This document shows positions 9,861-19,380 of a stretch of DNA of 64,000 nt, in pieces (within the stretch, counting starts at the first letter, position 1; each line of letters opens with the position of its first letter). Source of the stretch: Thauera terpenica 58Eu (GTDB taxonomy: Bacteria > Pseudomonadota > Gammaproteobacteria > Burkholderiales > Rhodocyclaceae); NCBI RefSeq assembly GCF_000443165.1, contig NZ_ATJV01000043.1, positions 1 through 64,000 of the forward strand, in the 5' to 3' direction. The notes beneath the pieces were generated by a model. The model ran no database searches. It was not told where the DNA came from and worked only from the letters and a program-made list of their open reading frames with translations. A program made the translations under genes and the position numbers.

Positions 9861-11121
9861 GCAACCCTTGATGCGTCGCATCGTCGTCGCCTTCGTGCTG
9901 ATGACGGCGCTGGTCAGTGGCACCTTTTCGCTGGGCATCGTGGCCATCGTGCACGTACTCGAGGAGCACCTGGTGTCGCAGGAGATGCAGCGCGAGCTTG
10001 AGTCCGTGCTGCAGGATGATCTGCGCAACCAACGCCCGCCACGCCTGGGCCCTGCGACTCGGTTCTACGCCTCCAGTCACAGCGCTTATGAGGTCCCGCC
10101 GCAGTACTCCGCACTCGACGACGGCTTCACCGAACTGGTCGACGGGGAGCGTGCACTCTACGTCTACATCCAGACCCTCAACGGCGAGCGCTTCGTGCTG
10201 GTGCAGGAACAACACGAGTTCGAGGCGCGCGAGAAGGCCTTGTTCAACGTGGTGCTCGCCGGCTTCCTGCTCTCGGTGGCGGGCGCCTGGGGACTGGGCT
10301 GGCTCATGGCCAGGCGCGTCATGACGCCAGTCAGCCGGCTGGCCCGGCAAGTCAGCCATCGCGACCAGCTGCTCCCCCTGGCGCCGGCGCTGGCAGCCGA
10401 GTATGCCGACGACGAGGTCGGGCAGCTGGCCGCGGCCTTCGACAGCACCCTCGGGCAGCTGCGCGACTCACTCGAGCGCGAGCGGCTGTTCACCAGTGAT
10501 GTCAGCCATGAACTGCGCACGCCGCTGACGGTGATCGCCACCTCATGCGAACTGCTGCAGCACGCACAGCTTGAGCCACGCCAGCGCGAACAACTCGGGC
10601 GCATCGAGCGCGCGAGCGAGGAAATGGGTGAGCTGGTGCAGACTTTCCTGCAACTGGCGCGCAGCAAGACGAACAAGACCGCCTTCGCGGCCAACTGCAC
10701 GCTGCAAGAAGTGCTTGATGAGCAAGCCGCCCACTGGGGGCCGCAGATACGTGCCAAGGGGCTGGCGTTCGAGCTCGGCAGCGAGGGGCAGGATACGGGC
10801 GTCTACAACCCGACCTTGCTGCGCGCCGTACTCTCCAATCTGTTGCGCAACGCCCTGCACTACACCGACGAGGGGCGTGTCCGGCTTGTCGCCGAGCGTG
10901 GCGGCTTCCGGGTGGAAGACAGCGGCTGGGGCATCGCGCAGCAACAGCATGAGCAGGTGTTCCAGCCCTTCGTGCGCGGCGAACATGCGCGCGGCGAAGG
11001 CCTCGGACTTGGCCTGTCGCTGGTCAGACGCATCTGCACCCACCAAGGATGGACGATCCGCATTCGGGATCTCGAGCCCAGCGGCACTTGCTTTCATGTG
11101 GTGCTCGACAGCACCGCTTGA
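9850..11121 (+). CDS. Sensor histidine kinase with HAMP domain
   Basis: The 423-residue inner-membrane kinase has membrane segments at about 11-36 and 131-155 flanking a periplasmic sensor loop of about 95 residues. It then has HAMP (about 155-210), the HisKA dimerisation helix with phospho-acceptor H220 in SDVSHELRTPL, and an ATP-binding domain with N box NLLRNALHY and the G box GLGLGLSLV. It overlaps the response regulator by 11 bases and surely phosphorylates it. An alternative start at 9871 (MRRIVV) would lose seven residues. The signal sensed is unknown; the architecture is that of QseC/PmrB-type sensors. Confidence 0.9.
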   Translation: MRSRQPLMRRIVVAFVLMTALVSGTFSLGIVAIVHVLEEHLVSQEMQRELESVLQDDLRNQRPPRLGPATRFYASSHSAYEVPPQYSALDDGFTELVDGERALYVYIQTLNGERFVLVQEQHEFEAREKALFNVVLAGFLLSVAGAWGLGWLMARRVMTPVSRLARQVSHRDQLLPLAPALAAEYADDEVGQLAAAFDSTLGQLRDSLERERLFTSDVSHELRTPLTVIATSCELLQHAQLEPRQREQLGRIERASEEMGELVQTFLQLARSKTNKTAFAANCTLQEVLDEQAAHWGPQIRAKGLAFELGSEGQDTGVYNPTLLRAVLSNLLRNALHYTDEGRVRLVAERGGFRVEDSGWGIAQQQHEQVFQPFVRGEHARGEGLGLGLSLVRRICTHQGWTIRIRDLEPSGTCFHVVLDSTA

Positions 11122-11239
11122 GGTATTTTTTTGGGAATGGCTTGGCTGCGGCCAGCTTGATGCGCGCGCCGGCCTCATGCAATCGACAGCGGCAATCGAC
11201 AGCGGGCGTAATCAACAGCGCAACAACGGGCAGACGCCA

Positions 11240-11522
11240 GACGTGACGATGGGGACCGAAGTCCCCACCGGCTTTCTTGGGTTACAAGGCTTCAGCGGCC
11301 CCGGCAGTCAGCTTATGCAGCTACTGCGAAACGCTCATCGTTGGCGTTTATGGTTTTGCGCGGATTACGTCCGTCGCCTCTCGAGTTGCCTGCGCACCTT
11401 TGCCCGCCCTGTCGAAACCAGTACACCCCCACCCAAGCACACTCCCGAATGCACTTGGGTGGAGGTGAGGGGAATCGAACCCCTGTCCAGAACGCCTCCG
11501 GGTTGCCGGGATTACAACCATG
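11240..11522 (-). ncRNA. ssrA: Circularly permuted two-piece tmRNA (beta-tmRNA)
   Basis: Read leftward, the acceptor part comes first: a T arm (AGGGG TTCGATT CCCCT) and the 3' acceptor strand CACCTCC at 11461-11467. A hairpin-closed linker follows (11431-11460, ACCCAAG pairing with CTTGGGT), then the 5' acceptor strand GGGGGTG (11424-11430) and the conserved ACTGGTTTCGACAGGG. The two strands pair over seven bases. The tag frame at 11313-11345 reads ANDERFAVAA then TAA. This order is the reverse of ordinary one-piece tmRNA and matches the permuted form known in some betaproteobacteria, which is cut into coding and acceptor RNAs. tmRNA rescues stalled ribosomes and tags the products for proteolysis. 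A stable hairpin at 11250-11267 lies near the 3' end; both outer ends are approximate. Confidence 0.9.
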
Positions 11523-11528
11523 GCTTGC

Positions 11529-11557
11529 ATCTTACGCAGGCCGGCCGCGACATTCAA
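11529..11557 (-). promoter_or_regulatory. Sigma-70 promoter of ssrA
   Basis: TTGAAT (11552-11557) and TAAGAT (11529-11534), read on the minus strand, are separated by exactly 17 bases. They are placed to start transcription just ahead of the acceptor portion of the tmRNA. Confidence 0.65.
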
Positions 11558-11769
11558 TGGTTGCACTGGTCATTTCCCGTCCAAGTTGTAAGCGCGTCTG
11601 TCAAGCCTCGCACCAGCGTCGCACGCACACCAGCTGAAGCTCCCCACTACCCGGGGTCGCCCGCGGAGCTGACCGAGCTCGATACCGGCGCTTAAGCACG
11701 GCACAGGGCTGGGCCGCAGACTCGACTCGGGTGATAATGCCGGACTGCCGAACTAACGGACTCGATGCA

Positions 11770-13014
11770 ATGAAGCGTGTTGACGACTTTCGCCTGAAGC
11801 TGGGATCCCAGGAATTGGTGCCGATCATGGTGGGCGGGATGGGCGTCGACATCTCGACGGCCGACCTCGCCCTCGAGGCGGCGCGCCTGGGCGGCGTCGG
11901 GCACATCTCGGACGCCATGCTGCCGACGGTTTCCGATCGCCGCTACAACACCAAGTACGTCAAGAACAAGCTCCAGCAGTACAAGTTCAACGTCGCCAAT
12001 ACCGACAAATCGGTCGTGCAGTTCGATCTTGGTCTGATTGCCGAGGCCACCGCGACCCATGTCAGCCGCACGATGGAGCGCAAGCAGGGCAGCGGCCAGA
12101 TCTTCATCAATTGCATGGAGAAGCTGACCATGAACTCGCCCAAGGAAACCCTCAGGGCGCGGCTCAGAGCGGCGATGGACAACGGCATCGATGGCATCAC
12201 CCTGGCGGCCGGCCTGCACCTGGGCTCGTTCGCACTGATCGAGGACCACCCGCGCTTTCACGACGTCCGGCTTGGCATCATCGTCAGCTCGCTGCGGGCG
12301 CTGCAGTTGTTCCTGAAGAAGAGCGCCCGCACCGGCCGCCAACCCGACTTCGTCGTGGTCGAGGGTCCACTCGCGGGCGGCCACCTCGGCTTCGGGCTCG
12401 ATTGGGCACAGTACGATCTCGCCACCATCGTCGTCGAAGTGCGTGACTGGCTCAAGGCACAGCAACTCGACATCCCCCTGATCCCGGCCGGCGGCATCTT
12501 CACCGGCACCGACGCGGTCAATTTCCTCGAGATGGGCGCGGCGGCGGTGCAGGTTGCCACCCGTTTCACGGTGGCGAAGGAATGCGGCCTGCCAGAAACG
12601 GTGCAACAGCACTACTTCAAGGCCAGCGAGGAAGAGATCGAGGTCAATCAGATCTCCCCCACCGGCTACCCGATGCGAATGCTCAAGAGCAGCCCCGCCA
12701 TCGGCAGCGGCATCCGCCCCAACTGTGAAGCCTACGGCTATCTGCTCGACTCGAGCGGCAACTGCCAGTACATCGAGGCCTACAACCGCGAGGTCGCGGC
12801 TCATCCGGAAGCGAAGAAGATCAAGGTCTTCGAAAAGACCTGTCTGTGCACCCACATGCGCAACTTCGACTGCTGGACCTGTGGCCACTACACCTACCGT
12901 CTCAAGGACACCTCGGTGCGCGAGGACAACGGTGATTACCGCATCCTCACCGCCGAGCATATCTTCCGCGACTACCAGTTCAGCACGGACAACAAGATCG
13001 CGCTGCCCGCCTGA
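11770..13014 (+). CDS. Nitronate monooxygenase-like flavoprotein with C-terminal cysteine cluster
   Basis: The 414-residue protein has the TIM-barrel fold of the nitronate monooxygenase/2-nitropropane dioxygenase family. Signs are the N-terminal PIMVGGMGVDIS, the FMN-region EGPLAGGHLGFG and IPAGGIFTG with ATRF further on. Family members oxidise alkyl nitronates using FMN and oxygen, and the family also includes enoyl-ACP reductase FabK-like enzymes. The C-terminal extension carries C358-x-C360-x7-C368-x2-C371, a metal-binding or iron-sulfur-like pattern not needed by typical members. The ATG at 11770 is the start that opens directly into the conserved fold. It stands alone, downstream of but opposite in strand to the tmRNA gene. 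Substrate unknown. Confidence 0.8.
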   Translation: MKRVDDFRLKLGSQELVPIMVGGMGVDISTADLALEAARLGGVGHISDAMLPTVSDRRYNTKYVKNKLQQYKFNVANTDKSVVQFDLGLIAEATATHVSRTMERKQGSGQIFINCMEKLTMNSPKETLRARLRAAMDNGIDGITLAAGLHLGSFALIEDHPRFHDVRLGIIVSSLRALQLFLKKSARTGRQPDFVVVEGPLAGGHLGFGLDWAQYDLATIVVEVRDWLKAQQLDIPLIPAGGIFTGTDAVNFLEMGAAAVQVATRFTVAKECGLPETVQQHYFKASEEEIEVNQISPTGYPMRMLKSSPAIGSGIRPNCEAYGYLLDSSGNCQYIEAYNREVAAHPEAKKIKVFEKTCLCTHMRNFDCWTCGHYTYRLKDTSVREDNGDYRILTAEHIFRDYQFSTDNKIALPA

Positions 13015-13138
13015 AGCGGATAGCCGGGGTGTTTACCCGGGATGACACCGTGCTCGCGCTTCAAGGCGGGCAAAGTTCCTCGCCTGCACGGCGTTTAGCA
13101 GCGATAGTCCCGATGTCCATGCTCCCTGATAGCCGCCC

Positions 13139-14194
13139 ATGAAAATCGTCATCGTCGACGACACCCCGCTCAACCTGTTGCTGATGGTCAAGCTCGTCGA
13201 TCGCCTGCCCGGCGTCGAATCGCACGGATTCGAGTCGCCGCAGGAGGCCTTGACATGGTGCGCGCACACCGAGCCCGACCTCATCATCGTCGACTACATG
13301 ATGCCGGACATCGACGGCCTCGAGTTCATTCGCCGCGTACGCGCCAGCCACAAGCACGAAGACGTGCCCATCCTCATGGTGACCGCGAACAACGAGCGTG
13401 GGGTGCGCTATGAGGCGCTCGAGTGTGGCGCCAACGACTTTCTGACCAAGCCGATCGACGCTCACGAGTTCGAACCGCGTGTGCGCAACATGCTCAAGCT
13501 GCGCGAAGCCCACCTCGCCACGCGCCAGCGCGCCGAGACCCTCAGCGTGGCGGTGCGCAAGGCCACCGCCGCGATTCTCGACCGCGAACGCGAAACCATC
13601 ACCCGCCTCGCGCGCGCCGCCGAATTCCGCGACCCCGAGACCGGCGCTCACATTCAGCGCATGTCGCACTACTCGGCAGTGATTGCACGCCGCATGGGCC
13701 TGGGGAGCGAGCTTGCCGACGCCCTGCTGCTGGCGGCACCCATGCATGACGTCGGCAAGCTCGGCATCCCTGACACCATCCTGCTCAAGCCCGGACGTCT
13801 GACAGTCAACGAGTTCGAGGTGATGAAACGCCACCCCCTCATCGGCCATGACATCCTCAAGGACTCTTCATCCGAAGTGCTGCGACTGGGCGCTCGCATC
13901 GCCTTGTCTCACCACGAGAAGTTCGATGGCACAGGCTACCCCAACGGCATCGCTGGCGAGGCAATTCCCCTCGAGGGCCGCATCGTCGCTGTGGCCGACG
14001 TATTTGACGCGCTGACCTCCTCCCGCCCCTACAAGCCCGCCTGGCCTTTCGCGCGCGCCATCGCGCTCCTGCGCGAAGGCCGGGGCAGCCACTTCGACGC
14101 ACGCTGCATCGACGCCTTCCTGTCGAGCTGGGACGAGGTACTCGACATCCACACCCGCTTCGTCGACGAACCCGAACACACGACCGTTCAATAG
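13139..14194 (+). CDS. HD-GYP response regulator (probable cyclic-di-GMP phosphodiesterase)
   Basis: The 351-residue protein has an N-terminal receiver (residues 1-125, phospho-acceptor D52 in IIVDYMMPD, lysine in LTKPI) and a C-terminal HD-GYP domain. The catalytic pair H203/D204 lies in MHDVGKLGIPD, and HHEKFDGTGYP (ending about 268) is the GYP signature. This is the layout of RpfG-type regulators, which linearise cyclic di-GMP to control motility, biofilm and virulence traits. No partner kinase is adjacent, so it is an orphan in this window. A hydrophilic coiled region (about 118-155) links the domains. Confidence 0.9.
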   Translation: MKIVIVDDTPLNLLLMVKLVDRLPGVESHGFESPQEALTWCAHTEPDLIIVDYMMPDIDGLEFIRRVRASHKHEDVPILMVTANNERGVRYEALECGANDFLTKPIDAHEFEPRVRNMLKLREAHLATRQRAETLSVAVRKATAAILDRERETITRLARAAEFRDPETGAHIQRMSHYSAVIARRMGLGSELADALLLAAPMHDVGKLGIPDTILLKPGRLTVNEFEVMKRHPLIGHDILKDSSSEVLRLGARIALSHHEKFDGTGYPNGIAGEAIPLEGRIVAVADVFDALTSSRPYKPAWPFARAIALLREGRGSHFDARCIDAFLSSWDEVLDIHTRFVDEPEHTTVQ

Positions 14195-14394
14195 CTTTCC
14201 GGACCGGGTTTCTGGACCGCCCCACAGCCGTCGGAACACCCCACTGCGTATGCGACCCAGGCTTGGTGGCGGCACCTCTGAAGTTCAACGCAACATCATC
14301 ACCACGCGCAAGCCGGGCTTGCCGAGAAACTTCCAGTCGATGATGATGCTGCGACGAGGTTCAGACTCCGCAAATCATCCTTGGACAAGCCCGC

Positions 14395-15411
14395 ATGAAA
14401 ATCTACACCACCGCCCCCCTGGAAGATCCGCGCAAGGCTCGCACCATCTACAAGGAACTGGAGGACATCGGCTATGACGGAGGCTTCTCCTTCGAAGCCA
14501 AGCACGACCCCTTCCTGACCCTCGCCGTCGCGGCCGAGCACACGAGCACCCTGCGCCTGGGCACGGCCATCGCCATCGCCTTCGCCCGCAACCCCATGAA
14601 CCTGGCCAACCTGGGCTACGACATGCAGTCGATCTCCGGTGGCCGCTTCTTCCTCGGCCTGGGCTCGCAGGTCAAACCCCACATCGAGAAGCGATTCAGT
14701 TCCGTCTGGTCCCATCCGGCCGAACGCATGCGGGAAATCGTGCTGGCCATCAAGGCCATCTGGAACTGCTGGGAGGGCAAGGCGCCGCTCAACTTCGAAG
14801 GCAAGTTCTACCGTCACACCATCATGATCCCGGCTTTCAACCCGGGGCCGAACCCCTTTGGTCCGCCACCGATACTCACCGGCGGCTTCGGCCCGCTGAT
14901 GACGGCGGTCGCTGGCGAGGCCGCCGACGGCTTCATCGGCCACCCCTTCAACACGCGGCGCTCATTGCTGGAAAACACGCTGCCGGCGCTGGAAAAAGGC
15001 TTGAGCAAATCGGGCCGCCAGCGCAGCGATATCGAGATCATCTGCGCCACCCTGGTCGTCACCGCCGATACCGAGGAAGCCTTTGAGGCCTCCAAATTGG
15101 CAGCGCGCAAGCAGCTGGCTTTCTACGGCTCCACGCCTGCCTACCTGCCCACACTGGCCTGCCATGGCTGGGACGACGTCCATGCCGAACTCAATCGGCT
15201 GTCCAAGGCGGGCCGTTGGGACGACATGACCGGCCTCATCAGCGACGAGATCCTCAATGAAGTTGCGGTGCTGGGGGAGCGTCACGAAATCGCCGGCAAG
15301 CTGCGCGCTCGTCTGGCCGGCATCGCCGACGGCGTCAGCATCACCCACAACCGCTGTCCCGACCCTGGCCATTGGGCTGACATCGTGCAGGCATTCAAGC
15401 GGGAAGGATGA
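14395..15411 (+). CDS. Luciferase-like (LLM-class) flavin/F420-dependent oxidoreductase
   Basis: The 338-residue protein has the bacterial luciferase-like TIM barrel. Conserved stretches include the N-terminal EDIGYDGGFSFEAKHDP, LRLGTAIAIAFARNP and SGGRFFLGLGSQVKPHIEKR. It most resembles the LLM subfamily described in F420-producing actinobacteria, although betaproteobacteria generally use FMN. It opens a same-strand run with a DUF1214 protein, a sulfotransferase and a short-chain dehydrogenase, with gaps of 19, 30 and 106 bases. A shared catabolic or modifying pathway for a hydrophobic alcohol or ketone is plausible, but the substrate is unknown. Confidence 0.8.
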   Translation: MKIYTTAPLEDPRKARTIYKELEDIGYDGGFSFEAKHDPFLTLAVAAEHTSTLRLGTAIAIAFARNPMNLANLGYDMQSISGGRFFLGLGSQVKPHIEKRFSSVWSHPAERMREIVLAIKAIWNCWEGKAPLNFEGKFYRHTIMIPAFNPGPNPFGPPPILTGGFGPLMTAVAGEAADGFIGHPFNTRRSLLENTLPALEKGLSKSGRQRSDIEIICATLVVTADTEEAFEASKLAARKQLAFYGSTPAYLPTLACHGWDDVHAELNRLSKAGRWDDMTGLISDEILNEVAVLGERHEIAGKLRARLAGIADGVSITHNRCPDPGHWADIVQAFKREG

Positions 15412-15430
15412 AGACCAGGAGGTAGCAAGG

Positions 15431-16621
15431 ATGAGCGCTAGCGATGACGAAGATGTTCTGCGCCAGGGCTGGGCAGACTTTTGCGACGAGTTGAAGAGAG
15501 CCGGAGAGATCCCGTTCCGGGCCACGGTGCCACCCCATGTCAATGATCGCACTGCCGGTTTCGAGGTCCTGGCCCGCAACATATCGCTGGCCTTGAACTT
15601 CCAACACGACTACGCGGATCCGCTCCATCCGGAGTTGATGCACTATTTCGACCCCGTGCGCAAGCAGGGCGGCGACAACACCGACGCGGTCTATGTTGGC
15701 GCCACCATCAATGGCACCGACACCTACCGCATCAGCGGCGACCGCGGCAGCGCCCGCTATTTCGCCGTCACCTCGGTCGAGCAGGGCCAGACCCCCTGGG
15801 GTGGCAAGGTAGCTCAGACCCTCTTCGCCGATGACCTTCAGGTGGACGCTGATGGCAGCTTCGAACTCATCTGCAGTCCCGAGCCCCAGCCCGGCAACTG
15901 GCTGCGCACCACCCCGGAAACCTTTCGCGTCACCTTCCGTCAGTTCTTCGCCGACTGGGAGAACGAGCGCCCCATGAAGGCGCGCATCGATCGATTGACC
16001 GGCGACATGAGCCCACCGCCACCCCCGACACCGCAACGTCTCGCACGGCAACTGCTGGCCTCGGCCAAATGGGTCAACGAGTCCATCGAGTTCTGGGTCT
16101 ACATGATCAACATGTGGAAAGCCCAACCCAACACCTTCCGCTCCTACAAGCAACTGGCAGATCAGGCCATCGACGCCACGCCGGGCGGCGAGCCCATGAT
16201 TGCCTACTGGGCCCTGCCGCCGGACGAGGCCCTGATCATCCGCGTGCGACCTCCCCGCTGCCAATACTGGGCGGTGGAGTTCGGCAACTACTGGTGGACC
16301 ACCATGGACTACCGCTACCGGCTGTCCAACACCAACTGCCATTACGCCCAACTGGAAGGCGACGGCGAACTGATCGTCGTCATCGCCCACGAAGATCCGG
16401 GCTTGCCCAACTGGCTGGATCCCTCCGGTTATGCGGAAGGCTATGTCTGCTACCGCTGGATGCTGTCTGACGCTTACCCGGCCCCTGTGGCCACCCAGAT
16501 CAAGTCGGCGCAGTTGTCCGAACATCTGCCGGCCGACGTGAAGCGCATCAGCCCGAATGGACGCCGCGAACAATTGGCAGCCCGGCGCCGGGGCGTGATC
16601 AACCGCTTCGGCAATATCTGA
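15431..16621 (+). CDS. DUF1214 domain-containing protein
   Basis: The 396-residue soluble protein has no signal peptide. The C-terminal half contains the DUF1214-type pattern: YWALPPDEALIIRVRPPRC, then EFGNYWWTTMDYRYRLSN, then a DPGLPNWLDPSG motif. The family has no established reaction. A strong ribosome site (AGGAGG) sits ahead of the ATG at 15431, 19 bases after the oxidoreductase stop. In this context it may bind or process the same substrate as its neighbours. That is inferred only from linkage. Confidence 0.8.
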   Translation: MSASDDEDVLRQGWADFCDELKRAGEIPFRATVPPHVNDRTAGFEVLARNISLALNFQHDYADPLHPELMHYFDPVRKQGGDNTDAVYVGATINGTDTYRISGDRGSARYFAVTSVEQGQTPWGGKVAQTLFADDLQVDADGSFELICSPEPQPGNWLRTTPETFRVTFRQFFADWENERPMKARIDRLTGDMSPPPPPTPQRLARQLLASAKWVNESIEFWVYMINMWKAQPNTFRSYKQLADQAIDATPGGEPMIAYWALPPDEALIIRVRPPRCQYWAVEFGNYWWTTMDYRYRLSNTNCHYAQLEGDGELIVVIAHEDPGLPNWLDPSGYAEGYVCYRWMLSDAYPAPVATQIKSAQLSEHLPADVKRISPNGRREQLAARRRGVINRFGNI

Positions 16622-16651
16622 ACGACATCCCCTTTTCCAGGAGAGGCCCAG

Positions 16652-17911
16652 ATGAGCGCAGGCACGCCGACAGGCTGGACACCCCCAGCACGCCCCGACT
16701 GGCTGGCAAAGCTCAACCAGGAAGGAAGGGGCATGGACATTGCCAGCCTGGTTCCCCTGCGCGCCCAGGAACTGCTGGACACGGCGATGGCCAACACGGG
16801 CCTCTCCGACTTCGGCAAAGACGAATGGCGCGAGCCCTTTGAAATTCTGGTCAAGGCGATAAACGAGGAGGCGGAGCTCAACCTTTTCGGCCGCCTGATG
16901 ACGCGTAGCGATCTGCTGATCTGGCTTCAGGAGCGGCTGGAGATCGAGGAAACCTACCGTCGCCATCCGGAGATCGAGGACGAGATCGTGGATGCGCCGG
17001 TATTCATTGTCGGCCAGGCCCGCTCCGGCACTTCCATTCTGTTCGAGTTGCTTTCACAGGACGGGCAGTTTGGCGTCCCGACCAACTGGGAAATCATGTT
17101 TCCCTGTCCGCCACCGGAGGCCGCTACCTACCGCAGCGACCCGCGCATCGCGAAGGCCCAGCACCTGCTGACCCAATGGCATCGGGTGGCCCCCAGCTTT
17201 CTCGCCATGCACGAGCTGGGGGCAAGCATACCCAACGAGTGCAAGGTGGCCATGAATTGCACCTTCGTCACCGACAACCTGACCGGCATCTTCCAGATTC
17301 CCAGCTATTACCAGTGGCTGACGCAGGCGGATCTCTCCGTCCCCTATGCCTACTACAAGCGCATGCTGAAGCTGTTGCAATGGAAGAACCCTCGTTCTCA
17401 TTGGCTCTTGAAATCGCCCTCCCATACCGAGAGCCTGCCTGTGCTGTTCAAGGTGTTTCCTGATGCCCAGGTGGTCTACACGCACCGGGATCCGATCAAG
17501 GCCAGGGCTTCGGTCACCAATCTGCTCGGCACCCTCTACTGGATGCGCAGCGACAAGCCATTCGATGCCGCCGCCTTCGAGCGCCTGCTGACGCCGGAGG
17601 CCTATGCTCACAGCCTCAACCGGGTCATTGAGCAGATCGAGGACGGCAGCATCCCCCGATCCCGCATCCATGATCTCCTGTTCGCCGATCTGATGGCCCA
17701 GCCCCAGGAAACGCTCGCCCGACTGTATCAGCAGATGGGCCTGCCGTTCTCCGAGCAGGCCCGCAGCAACGTGCTCAGCTACCTGGCCGAAAAGCCCCAA
17801 GGCAGATTCGGCCAGCATCAGTACAGCGTCGGCGAACGCGACCAGATCGCCAGGGAACGGGAGATTTTTGCCCGCTATCAGCACTTCCACCACGTACCGG
17901 ACGAGCTCTGA
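16652..17911 (+). CDS. PAPS-dependent sulfotransferase family protein
   Basis: The 419-residue protein has the sulfotransferase P-loop-like PAPS-binding motif GQARSGTS at residues 121-128, preceded by APVFIV, and a second 3'-phosphate-binding element in YTHRDPIKARAS. WLLKSPSHTE is the typical segment carrying a conserved lysine and histidine. Members transfer sulfate from PAPS to hydroxyl groups of small molecules or glycans. No PAPS-synthesis genes lie nearby. It is third in the run that begins with the luciferase-like oxidoreductase, so a hydroxylated metabolite of that pathway is a reasonable acceptor guess. Confidence 0.82.
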   Translation: MSAGTPTGWTPPARPDWLAKLNQEGRGMDIASLVPLRAQELLDTAMANTGLSDFGKDEWREPFEILVKAINEEAELNLFGRLMTRSDLLIWLQERLEIEETYRRHPEIEDEIVDAPVFIVGQARSGTSILFELLSQDGQFGVPTNWEIMFPCPPPEAATYRSDPRIAKAQHLLTQWHRVAPSFLAMHELGASIPNECKVAMNCTFVTDNLTGIFQIPSYYQWLTQADLSVPYAYYKRMLKLLQWKNPRSHWLLKSPSHTESLPVLFKVFPDAQVVYTHRDPIKARASVTNLLGTLYWMRSDKPFDAAAFERLLTPEAYAHSLNRVIEQIEDGSIPRSRIHDLLFADLMAQPQETLARLYQQMGLPFSEQARSNVLSYLAEKPQGRFGQHQYSVGERDQIAREREIFARYQHFHHVPDEL

Positions 17912-18017
17912 TGGCCTGCGATGCGAGCGAGCTTGCCTCCATCAGCGGTGCACTGTTGCCGGTAAACGGCGCGATTCATGGTCCCACCAACGACTGACAT
18001 CGACGAGGAGAACCGGC

Positions 18018-18851
18018 ATGGATCTGGACCTGAAAGGCAAGACCATCATCATCACAGGTGGCAGCGGCGGTATCGGCCAGGGCTTGGTGATGGAATTCGC
18101 CCGCGAAGGCTGCAATGTGCTCAGTGCTTCAAGGGATGCGGCCACCGGCCAAAAGCTCGCTCAGGAGGCCAAGCAGCAGGGCCTGCCCGGCCAGGTGCTG
18201 GCAGTGGCCACCGATGTCACCCAACGGGCCAGTGTGGAGGCGATGATTGAAATCGCCCACCAGCAGTTCGGCCCCATCGACGGACTGGTGAACAATGCCG
18301 GCGGCGTTGCCCACCCGGCTGCCTTTGCGGAACTGGACGAGGCGGCTCGACGCTGGGAGATTGCGCTCAACATTGATGGCGTCGTGAATTGCTGCCAGGC
18401 GGTCGCCAGGGACATGTTGGCTCTGGGCCGAGGGAGCATCGTCAACATCTCCTCCAACTCCTCCCTGCTGGGCGAGGCCGCCGCGGGCGTCGCCCACTAT
18501 GGCGCCACCAAGGGTTTCGTGAATAGCCTGTCCAAGGCGCTGGCCTGGGAATGGGCCAAGCAAGGGGTGCGCGTGAACAACATCTGTCCGGGCTGGATCG
18601 TGCCCCACAAGGCGGAGAACGTAGGCGGCGGCAGCTTCTGGAACCGCTTCGGTTTTGAGCAACTCGGCAAGCCGGAGGACATGGAACGAGCGCGCCTGGA
18701 GGGCAGTCTGTTCAACATGAGCGGGCTGCCCACCCCTCGCCTGGGGCGCCCCGAGGATATCGCCAATCTGGCGCTGTTCCTCATTTCGGAGCGCTCCAGC
18801 TACATCACGGGACAGCTCATCAGCGTCAGCGGCGGCGCCTATATGCCCTGA
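18018..18851 (+). CDS. Short-chain dehydrogenase/reductase
   Basis: The 277-residue protein is a classical SDR. The nucleotide-binding motif TGGSGGIG is at 13-20, NNAG at 92-95, the catalytic serine lies near 146, and Y161-x3-K165 is in YGATKGF. The C-terminal segment GQLISVSGGAYMP is the usual SDR ending. An ATG at 18018 with GAGGAG upstream gives the canonical start. It is the last gene of the run, followed by a hairpin convergent with gloA. It should oxidise an alcohol or reduce a ketone with NAD(P); the substrate is not predictable from sequence. Confidence 0.88.
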   Translation: MDLDLKGKTIIITGGSGGIGQGLVMEFAREGCNVLSASRDAATGQKLAQEAKQQGLPGQVLAVATDVTQRASVEAMIEIAHQQFGPIDGLVNNAGGVAHPAAFAELDEAARRWEIALNIDGVVNCCQAVARDMLALGRGSIVNISSNSSLLGEAAAGVAHYGATKGFVNSLSKALAWEWAKQGVRVNNICPGWIVPHKAENVGGGSFWNRFGFEQLGKPEDMERARLEGSLFNMSGLPTPRLGRPEDIANLALFLISERSSYITGQLISVSGGAYMP

Positions 18852-18871
18852 GCGGCTGTTCATGAAACCTG

Positions 18872-18895
18872 AAACCCATGTCGAGCACGGGTTTT
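18872..18895. terminator. Hairpin between convergent SDR and gloA genes
   Basis: AAACCCATG (18872-18880) pairs with CACGGGTTT (18886-18894) around a 5-base loop with one mismatch. A short T run follows on the plus strand and the A-rich left arm would give U residues on the minus strand. The position between convergent genes supports a bidirectional terminator. Confidence 0.5.
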
Positions 18896-18939
18896 ACGTG
18901 ACTCACAATCGCGACGTCATCATCCCGTGCGCTACGCTG

Positions 18940-19335
<396 letters not shown>

Positions 19336-19380
19336 GTTCAGTTTTCCTTTAAAGTCGATTCGTCGCACGCGACGAAGGTC

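What the first reader, a model, noticed from the sequence alone, without database searches (positions are those of the whole stretch)
14395..18851. Uncharacterised run: luciferase-like oxidoreductase, DUF1214, sulfotransferase, short-chain dehydrogenase
Four same-strand genes with short gaps combine two redox enzymes, a PAPS sulfotransferase and a domain of unknown function. Related sets are more familiar in actinobacteria that attack sterols and other hydrophobic compounds. Possible roles are synthesis or breakdown of a sulfated lipid or alcohol. This is the best candidate in the window for an undescribed pathway.
Basis: inference. Interest (0 to 1): 0.62.

Follow-up and report, generated by a model that had tools for sequence, protein, structure and literature searches.

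The report
Mobile steroid-sulfation gene cassette
Four neighbouring bacterial genes form a transferable unit that most likely attaches sulfate to steroid-type molecules while the cell breaks them down, a step for which we found no description in the papers we could search.

Summary
In detail: LLM oxidoreductase (TIGR03617), DUF1214, Sulfotransfer_3 and SDR genes lie on one strand at 14395-18851, with gaps of 19, 30 and 106 nt.

The four genes fill a ~4.8-kb insertion. In 11 of 12 genus-mates fetched, left-flank gene(s) lie beside gloA without it. An acyl-CoA-dehydrogenase remnant (14262-14333) shows part of its origin.

DUF1214+ST recurs three more times in this genome; ST is adjacent in 45 of 75 other loci. 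PAPS-synthesis genes lie near in 15 of 75, though in 0 of the 6 closest orthologues. A sister copy is cysD-cysNC-cysQ-TetR-ST-DUF1214-SDR-LLM in 7 of 7 genus-mates (SDR missing in one); all seven carry cofD (F420) and an Ltp2-type steroid thiolase gene. A Tsukamurella DUF1214-SDR-ST operon and its cysD operon carry boxes resembling the KstR (cholesterol) motif.

Best reading: PAPS-dependent sulfation of an alcohol during steroid catabolism, with F420- and NAD(P)-linked redox steps. Sulfate as a leaving group removed by DUF1214 is my favoured, unproven mechanism. Substrate and DUF1214 activity are unknown.

The parts
14395..15411 (+). LLM-class oxidoreductase, TIGR03617 subfamily, probably coenzyme F420-dependent
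   Evidence: 448.9 bits vs cut-off 278.15; of 9 solved sequences matched (E 1e-17 to 1e-12), 8 are named F420-dependent enzymes or methylene-H4MPT reductases and one a luciferase family protein
15431..16621 (+). DUF1214 protein (PF06742), 396 aa, function unknown; proposed to act on the sulfate ester
   Evidence: 40.5 bits vs cut-off 25; AlphaFold mean pLDDT 92.1; full-length fold match to 6ans, Z 42.2
16652..17911 (+). PAPS-type sulfotransferase, Sulfotransfer_3, 419 aa
   Evidence: 113.3 bits vs cut-off 27; GQARSGTS loop at residue 121 and HRDP...S region; closest solved relatives 2z6v and 2zq5
18018..18851 (+). classical short-chain dehydrogenase/reductase, 277 aa
   Evidence: PF00106 173.3 bits; best relatives lie near DUF1214 in L037 and L035 (486 and 390 bits)
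14262..14333 (+). remnant of the C-terminus of an acyl-CoA dehydrogenase gene
   Evidence: frame reads GGGTSEVQRNIITTRKPGLPRNF; 70-83% identical to the end of the acyl-CoA dehydrogenase just upstream of LLM in L033, L034 and L036 (Pfam confirms the L033 gene)
14177..18955 (.). extent of the inserted unit (no blastn homology to genus-mates at this site)
   Evidence: homology to genus-mates stops at or before 14176 and resumes at 18956-18961; NMO-(HDGYP)-gloA adjacent in 11 of 12 genus-mates fetched
13139..14194 (+). left flank: response regulator with HD domain (not part of the cassette)
18940..19368 (-). right flank: lactoylglutathione lyase gloA (not part of the cassette)

Best explanation
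The run is one horizontally acquired copy of a widespread module, linked to steroid catabolism and built around a PAPS-dependent sulfotransferase and a DUF1214 protein. The sulfotransferase sulfates an alcohol group on a hydrophobic, steroid-type intermediate (sulfation itself: about 0.9). The setting is catabolism of steroids or similar isoprenoids rather than making a sulfolipid (about 0.7). The SDR and the F420-dependent LLM enzyme carry out hydride-transfer steps before or after sulfation (about 0.6). My committed mechanism for the rest, inferred and not shown (about 0.3): the sulfate ester is an activated leaving group; DUF1214 cleaves the C-O bond, giving an alkene or displaced product, and the redox enzymes pull the product on. 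Shown here: gene identity, insertion as a unit, recurrent pairing, and linkage of related sets to PAPS synthesis, to F420 synthesis and to steroid genes. Inferred: every reaction.
For: Sulfation: PAPS-loop residues are kept. A sister set in the same genome is preceded by cysD, cysNC (ATP sulfurylase + APS kinase) and cysQ (PAP phosphatase), all above their cut-offs, and this order is kept in 7 of 7 genus-mates fetched. In 75 other loci PAPS-synthesis genes are 31 of 521 genes at 1-4 genes from DUF1214 and 0 of 325 at 5 or more (Fisher p 2e-7). A Tsukamurella plasmid has cysD and a cysC-type gene divergent from DUF1214-SDR-ST. Pairing: ST immediately beside DUF1214 in 45 of 75 loci; 49 of 145 genes at distance 1 against 5 of 325 at 5 or more. 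Steroid link: set (ii) on C70 starts 39 nt behind a lipid-transfer thiolase gene (549 bits to 6ok1_A; 622.4 bits to PRK07855, cut-off 469). The orthologous DUF1214-ST-SDR in L035 faces such a thiolase (586.9 bits), a ChsH2-DUF35-type gene (6ok1_B, 4w78) and a 3-oxosteroid 1-dehydrogenase relative (632 bits to 7p18). Among 28 genus-mates the sister set occurs in 7 of 8 genomes with a 59-60% identical thiolase and 0 of 20 without, 5-11 kb from it. KstR-like boxes lie before both cysD and DUF1214 in Tsukamurella, and a KstR motif is reported upstream of Rv3531c (PMC1995591, passages). F420: cofE, cofD and FO synthase genes in this genome; TIGR03617 over cut-off in 11 of 13 cofD-positive and 0 of 5 cofD-negative genomes, in 18 that I picked. 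Unit: empty site.
Against: No activity, substrate or product is known. The window copy has no PAPS or steroid gene next to it, and none of the six closest orthologous loci has a PAPS gene within five genes; the PAPS linkage comes from paralogues and relatives at about 20-39% identity. The 15 loci with PAPS genes are 6 Pseudomonas, 8 other gammaproteobacterial-type records and 1 Acidimicrobiia (titles), so there are few independent cases, and no cysQ-like gene was found in the 80 loci. In 18 of 75 loci no ST lies within four genes of DUF1214, and of eight annotated plasmid stretches around DUF1214 hits only two show an ST, one of them beside it (those gene tables are incomplete). LLM and SDR are not constant partners: a strong LLM within three genes in 4 of 75, an SDR in 24 of 75. 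An alkylsulfatase-type gene is near in 7 of 75, which would fit hydrolysis rather than elimination. The DUF1214 genes of set (iii) and of Tsukamurella fall just under the Pfam cut-off (24.8 and 22.3 bits against 25), though they score well with session profiles or pairwise. Fisher values ignore shared ancestry.
Confidence: 0.6

Rival explanations
1. Sulfation for solubility or traffic: the module makes steroid sulfates so that sparingly soluble substrates can be handled or exported, and a sulfatase later removes the group; DUF1214 is a binding or carrier protein.
For: Alkylsulfatase-type genes within five genes of DUF1214 in 7 of 75 loci (PF14863 in the representative); DUF1214 is mostly beta with no solved relative of known function.
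Against: 68 of 75 loci lack such a sulfatase nearby; DUF1214 has polar residues identical in all 55 aligned sequences (D85, N156, R170, N286, N302, R342), which is more than a carrier needs; a redox partner would not be required.
Confidence: 0.2
2. Biosynthesis: the four genes make a sulfated lipid or signalling compound unrelated to growth on steroids.
For: Sulfotransferase relatives include regions annotated as polyketide synthase and solved CurM/OLS domains; the window copy stands alone among ordinary genes.
Against: A paralogue and the L035 orthologue sit with lipid-transfer thiolase, ChsH-type and 3-oxosteroid dehydrogenase genes; the sister set tracks that thiolase in 28 genus-mates; the insertion carries an acyl-CoA dehydrogenase remnant.
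Confidence: 0.15
3. Detoxification or loose association: four generally useful enzymes moved together by chance and act on different compounds.
For: LLM and SDR partners change between loci.
Against: The DUF1214-ST pair and, in several lineages, PAPS genes recur with close spacing.
Confidence: 0.05

Closest known systems
Mycobacterial Rv3531c-Rv3530c-Rv3529c (KstR regulon; Rv3529c = sulfotransferase Stf1)
   Same: A sulfotransferase (Rv3529c is called Stf1 in PMC8882603, passage), a possible oxidoreductase and a hypothetical protein listed among cholesterol-catabolic genes (PMC6429209, passages), with a KstR motif upstream of Rv3531c (PMC1995591, passages). The Tsukamurella DUF1214-SDR-ST operon, whose ST scores 573.6 bits to 2zq5 (that 2zq5 is Rv3529c is recalled), would match this order.
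   Different: Gene order in the window is LLM-DUF1214-ST-SDR, with an F420-type LLM inside the operon. That Rv3531c is a DUF1214 protein is recalled and was not tested. No reaction is given for these genes in the passages seen.
25-hydroxysteroid kinase route of Sterolibacterium denitrificans (PMC8449060, passages and section 4)
   Same: Activation of a steroid alcohol as an ester for later elimination in an anaerobic sterol degrader; a phosphate-eliminating C-O lyase is described as a distinct activity (no gene named for it in what I read); a 30-kDa band matching luciferases was among the enriched bands.
   Different: Phosphate from ATP, a phosphotransferase; the terms sulf and F420 do not occur in the main text.
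CurM/OLS sulfotransferase domains (PMC3903477, passages) and sorghum LGS1 (PMC8713700, passages)
   Same: PAPS sulfotransferases that activate a hydroxyl by sulfation so that it leaves; the CurM/OLS domains are weak profile relatives of our ST (4gox, 4gbm, E 7-8e-10).
   Different: Biosynthetic; the second step is done by a thioesterase or is likely spontaneous; no DUF1214, F420 enzyme or catabolic setting.
6ans, uncharacterised protein of Burkholderia cenocepacia
   Same: Same full-length DUF1214 fold: Z 42.2, rmsd 2.7 A over 361 residues; E 1.3e-159 with the profile.
   Different: No function in the entry title.

Membership tests
TIGR03617 F420-dependent LLM oxidoreductases | score above the curated cut-off | tested here: met
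   448.9 vs 278.15 bits
TIGR03617 F420-dependent LLM oxidoreductases | use of F420 rather than FMN | tested here: inconclusive
   Host has cofD, cofE and FO synthase genes; family over cut-off in 11 of 13 cofD+ and 0 of 5 cofD- genomes, 18 picked by me; cofactor not measured; cofC not searched
Sulfotransfer_3 PAPS sulfotransferases | profile cut-off and PAPS-binding loop | tested here: met
   113.3 vs 27 bits; GQARSGTS at 121; R124, G126, K254, R279, S287 invariant in the 8 sequences of A2
Sulfotransfer_3 PAPS sulfotransferases | sulfate transfer from PAPS to an alcohol | not testable with these tools
   linkage of related sets to PAPS genes only
DUF1214 (PF06742) | profile cut-off and fold | tested here: met
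   40.5 vs 25 bits; 6ans Z 42.2
Classical SDR | profile, glycine motif and YxxxK | tested here: met
   PF00106 173.3 bits; GGSGGIGQG and YGATK read directly in the translation; the motifs are recalled
KstR-regulated Rv3531c-Rv3529c type operon | gene order DUF1214-SDR-ST | tested here: not met
   window order is LLM-DUF1214-ST-SDR; works like, not filed as, this operon
KstR-regulated Rv3531c-Rv3529c type operon | KstR box upstream | not tested
   searched only in L189, L076, L083 and L056; 12 of 14 or better only in L189
25-hydroxysteroid kinase route | 25-HSK phosphotransferase in the genome | not tested
   no 25-HSK sequence at hand

The most novel reading that the evidence does not exclude
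Bacteria degrade some steroids through a sulfated intermediate: a sulfotransferase turns an unreactive (perhaps tertiary) alcohol into a sulfate ester, DUF1214 is a new class of sulfate-eliminating C-O lyase, and an F420-dependent enzyme uses the product. In some lineages PAPS is made and PAP recycled by genes of the same operon because the demand is stoichiometric with growth substrate.
Probability: 0.25. Interest if true: 0.85.

Novelty: new variant of a known kind. Interest (0 to 1): 0.62.

Why it matters
PAPS-dependent sulfation is costly and is mostly known from decoration, signalling or detoxification (established knowledge). A recurrent module that couples sulfation, a protein family of unknown function and F420 to steroid breakdown would add an unrecognised step to an environmentally important pathway. 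It would offer a testable function for DUF1214, whose solved structure (6ans) has no assigned role, and for the sulfotransferase operon among cholesterol-catabolic genes of actinobacteria.

Tried and rejected
Idea that the LLM is an FMN luciferase of general use: not favoured, because the family tracks cofD and most of its nearest solved relatives are F420 enzymes; not excluded. KstR-like boxes in Gordonia L076 and L083 and in Acidimicrobiia L056: best matches 10, 9 and 11 of 14, not taken as boxes. Control for the Tsukamurella boxes: with the looser core pattern and one mismatch, 3 sites against 0.57 expected, and 2 of 100 shuffles reached 3; with the full 14-mer, 0 of 300 first-order resamplings had a site of 12 or more; the middle two bases of that 14-mer are N in the paper's palindrome, and a KstR gene in that organism was not looked for. 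Idea that the nitronate monooxygenase and HD-domain regulator upstream belong to the unit: rejected by the empty site. A function for DUF1214 from fold search: only 6ans and the uncharacterised Vibrio proteins 3u07, 3vb9 and 2p3y stood out (Z 11.8-13.9 for the latter); lower rows (Z 6.2 and less) I took as common beta arrangements. Idea that ST-SDR always comes with DUF1214: not so; in Mycolicibacterium madagascariense the gene after ST-SDR matches neither Pfam nor my profiles. Paper searches for a published link: DUF1214+sulfotransferase 0 papers; DUF1214 1 paper on genome quality; sulfotransferase+steroid degradation+Denitratisoma 1 review, listing only; sulfotransferase+KstR 3 and sulfotransferase+KshA 5, none relevant by listing; Rv3529c+sulfotransferase 1. 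PMC6016249 holds neither sulfotransferase nor F420; of PMC11061730 I saw the outline and abstract only; two papers that name Rv3529c do so in reference lists, for a paper on innate immune signalling. The library lacks most subscription journals. Rows dropped: 5 of 80 loci (L065, L077, L079, L081, L089) had no DUF1214 gene call; in the raw ORFs all five have an ST just downstream. Of 80 DUF1214 matches, 62 were tried for alignment A4 and 8 of these left out because the match range ran over a stop. 16 of 28 genus-mates were searched for the right flank; all matched, 4 of them only beyond gloA; the 12 with the gloA part were fetched. Species identity of the host was not established; the gene content resembles sterol-degrading beta-proteobacteria (inference).
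Full report
WHAT IS THERE. The four genes are real and correctly placed. LLM 14395-15411 scores 448.9 bits to TIGR03617. DUF1214 15431-16621 scores 40.5 bits to PF06742, the sulfotransferase (ST) 16652-17911 scores 113.3 bits to PF13469, and the SDR 18018-18851 scores 173.3 bits to PF00106. The gaps are 19, 30 and 106 nt, each with a purine-rich stretch before the ATG. The pattern scan put no promoter- or terminator-like site between them.

A TRANSFERRED UNIT. The window is G000:C43 of a 4.15-Mb genome. Of 28 genus-mates, 16 were searched for the right flank; all 16 match, four of them only beyond gloA. The twelve with gloA were fetched. In 11 of 12 the nitronate monooxygenase gene lies beside gloA, in five of these with the HD-domain regulator between them, and in none of 12 was a cassette gene detected. 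DNA homology stops at or before 14176 and resumes at 18956-18961. Among 61 genomes (own and relatives) the window-type DUF1214 is found only here; seven genus-mates have the other, longer type. The closest relatives, 66-84% identical in DUF1214, are six loci in MAGs labelled Steroidobacteraceae, Pseudomonadales, Pseudomonadota or Proteobacteria; records of very near genomes may be left out of that scan. Four of these six match the window DNA over LLM-DUF1214-ST, one over DUF1214-ST and SDR, one over DUF1214 and SDR. In L033, L034 and L036 an acyl-CoA dehydrogenase gene lies just upstream of LLM; its last codons survive in the window at 14262-14333. The insert was therefore cut from a longer operon, or is a recombinant of such operons (inference).

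COPIES IN THE SAME GENOME. Contig C70 holds three more sets: (i) DUF1214-ST-SDR at 10243-13387; (ii) ST-DUF1214-SDR at about 138983-142301; (iii) ST-DUF1214-SDR-LLM at about 154266-158815 (its DUF1214 scores 24.8 bits, just under the cut-off of 25). Set (ii) follows, by 39 nt, a thiolase-like gene with 549 bits to the lipid-transfer protein chain of 6ok1 (the name Ltp2 and its role in steroid side-chain cleavage are recalled). Further upstream lie genes of a type II DMSO-reductase-family Mo enzyme (beta subunit over its cut-off, alpha 927.3 against 984.75; closest solved relative ethylbenzene dehydrogenase 2ivf, 657 bits) and the F420 genes cofE and cofD, both over cut-off. Set (iii) follows cysD, cysNC and cysQ and a TetR-type gene. 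In 7 of 7 genus-mates fetched the order is cysD-cysNC-cysQ-TetR-ST-DUF1214-SDR-LLM; the SDR was not detected in one, L157. In these seven, cofD lies 3.5-5.5 kb to one side and the Ltp2-type gene 5-11 kb to the other. FO synthase genes are also present in the host.

ACROSS BACTERIA. Eighty loci were fetched with a DUF1214 alignment; 75 had a DUF1214 gene call. An ST is the immediate same-strand neighbour in 45 of 75 and within four genes, either strand, in 57 of 75. By gene, an ST is found at 49 of 145 positions at distance 1 and 5 of 325 at distance 5 or more (p about 1e-22, ignoring relatedness). Recurrent other neighbours include an SDR cluster (33 loci), an APS kinase/CysNC cluster (15), acyl-CoA dehydrogenase (13), SRPBCC (11), ATP sulfurylase (8) and CysD (7) (representatives named). 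PAPS-synthesis genes lie within five genes in 15 of 75 loci and at 0 of 325 positions further out: 6 Pseudomonas, 8 other gammaproteobacterial-type records, 1 Acidimicrobiia, and none of the six closest orthologues. No cysQ-like gene was found in these loci. Alkylsulfatase-type genes are near in 7 of 75. On plasmids the pairing is weaker: of eight annotated stretches around DUF1214 hits an ST is annotated in two, L189 and L191, though those gene tables are incomplete; two of the eight (L112, L117) have an annotated CysQ.

STEROID LINK. The orthologous DUF1214-ST-SDR in L035 faces a lipid-transfer thiolase (586.9 bits to PRK07855, cut-off 469), a ChsH2-DUF35-type gene and a relative of 3-oxosteroid 1-dehydrogenase (632 bits to 7p18; 490 bits to the NCBIfam model, under its cut-off of 789). 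Among 28 genus-mates, set (iii) occurs in 7 of the 8 with a 59-60% identical Ltp2-type gene and in 0 of the other 20 (p 7e-6, ignoring relatedness). In a Tsukamurella plasmid a DUF1214-SDR-ST operon is divergent from cysD and a cysC-type gene, with a regulator gene between; its DUF1214 scores 22.3 bits in Pfam, under the cut-off, but 235-273 bits with session profiles. Boxes resembling the published KstR palindrome (PMC1995591, passages) at 13 and 12 of 14 positions lie 56 bp before cysD and 38 bp before DUF1214; 0 of 300 resamplings had any site of 12 or more, while a looser pattern was less striking (3 sites, 0.57 expected). That ST scores 573.6 bits to the solved structure 2zq5. In Mycobacterium tuberculosis a KstR motif precedes Rv3531c, and Rv3531c, Rv3530c and Rv3529c are listed among cholesterol-catabolic genes as hypothetical protein, possible oxidoreductase and conserved hypothetical protein (PMC6429209, passages). 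Rv3529c is called sulfotransferase Stf1 in PMC8882603 (passage). That Rv3531c is a DUF1214 protein and that 2zq5 is Rv3529c are recalled, not tested.

F420. In 18 genomes that I picked among those of the loci, cofD is over cut-off in 13 and TIGR03617 in 11, all 11 among the 13 (p 0.0025). Among 28 genus-mates cofD occurs in 8, including all 7 with set (iii). The LLM is therefore most likely F420-dependent; the cofactor was not measured.

DUF1214. The AlphaFold model has mean pLDDT 92.1; I read it as two beta-rich halves with added helices. The only close solved structure is 6ans, of unknown function (Z 42.2). Twelve positions are identical in all 55 aligned sequences, among them D85, Y99, N156, R170, N286, N302 and R342. 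A conserved polar set fits an enzyme, but no residue was placed in three dimensions.

HOW IT MOST LIKELY WORKS. A PAPS sulfotransferase that in some lineages has its own PAPS supply and PAP phosphatase, in or near steroid gene clusters, points to sulfation of a steroid-type alcohol at catabolic flux. A growth pathway has no use for a permanent sulfate, so the ester should be resolved. CurM/OLS (PMC3903477, passages) and LGS1 (PMC8713700, passages) use PAPS to make a hydroxyl a better leaving group. In Sterolibacterium a kinase plays the like role at C25, and the eliminating lyase is described as a separate activity (PMC8449060, section 4). DUF1214, the commonest partner of the ST in our loci, is the natural candidate for the second step. 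This last part is inference (about 0.3). Hydrolysis, inversion or binding remain open; alkylsulfatase-type neighbours in 7 of 75 loci speak for hydrolysis in some lineages.

VERDICT. A real, mobile, four-gene cassette of a recurrent, steroid-linked sulfation module. The parts are known families; the combination and its role were not found in the papers searched.

Noticed in passing
G000:C70 129555-131269 (L027 4556-6270), C48:280274-282520, C67:26810-27850: Coenzyme F420 biosynthesis genes (cofE, cofD, an FbiC-like fused FO synthase and a second cofH); cofD is found in only 8 of 28 genus-mates, 3.5-5.5 kb from the sulfation operon in seven.
   Followed up: partly
L102, L103, L104, L061, L106, L070, L072: Alkylsulfatase-type metallo-beta-lactamase genes within five genes of DUF1214, in some loci without a sulfotransferase nearby.
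   Followed up: no
L112 7905-8684 and L117 6700-7446: CysQ PAP phosphatase genes a few genes from DUF1214 on Novosphingobium plasmids (ES2-1 and pNL2) although no sulfotransferase is annotated in the stretch shown.
   Followed up: no
L069 and L097: Record titles name Klebsiella pneumoniae MAG MH-08apr19-278, but L069 shows the same DUF1214-ST, CysNC/Sat layout as loci titled uncultured Gammaproteobacteria (L060, L070, L071); the label is probably wrong.
   Followed up: no
plasmid hits H67, H68, H74 (Planktothrix agardhii): The window sulfotransferase matches regions annotated type I polyketide synthase at 31-33% identity, a sequence link to sulfation as activation chemistry.
   Followed up: partly
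G000:C70 131570-136314 (L027 6571-11315): Type II DMSO-reductase-family Mo enzyme genes (gamma, beta, alpha) resembling ethylbenzene dehydrogenase, between cofD and set (ii); steroid C25 dehydrogenase would be a candidate identity (not tested).
   Followed up: partly
G000:C56:29176-30225 (L031 9150-10382): A fifth sulfotransferase of the same family without a DUF1214 gene in the stretch read.
   Followed up: no
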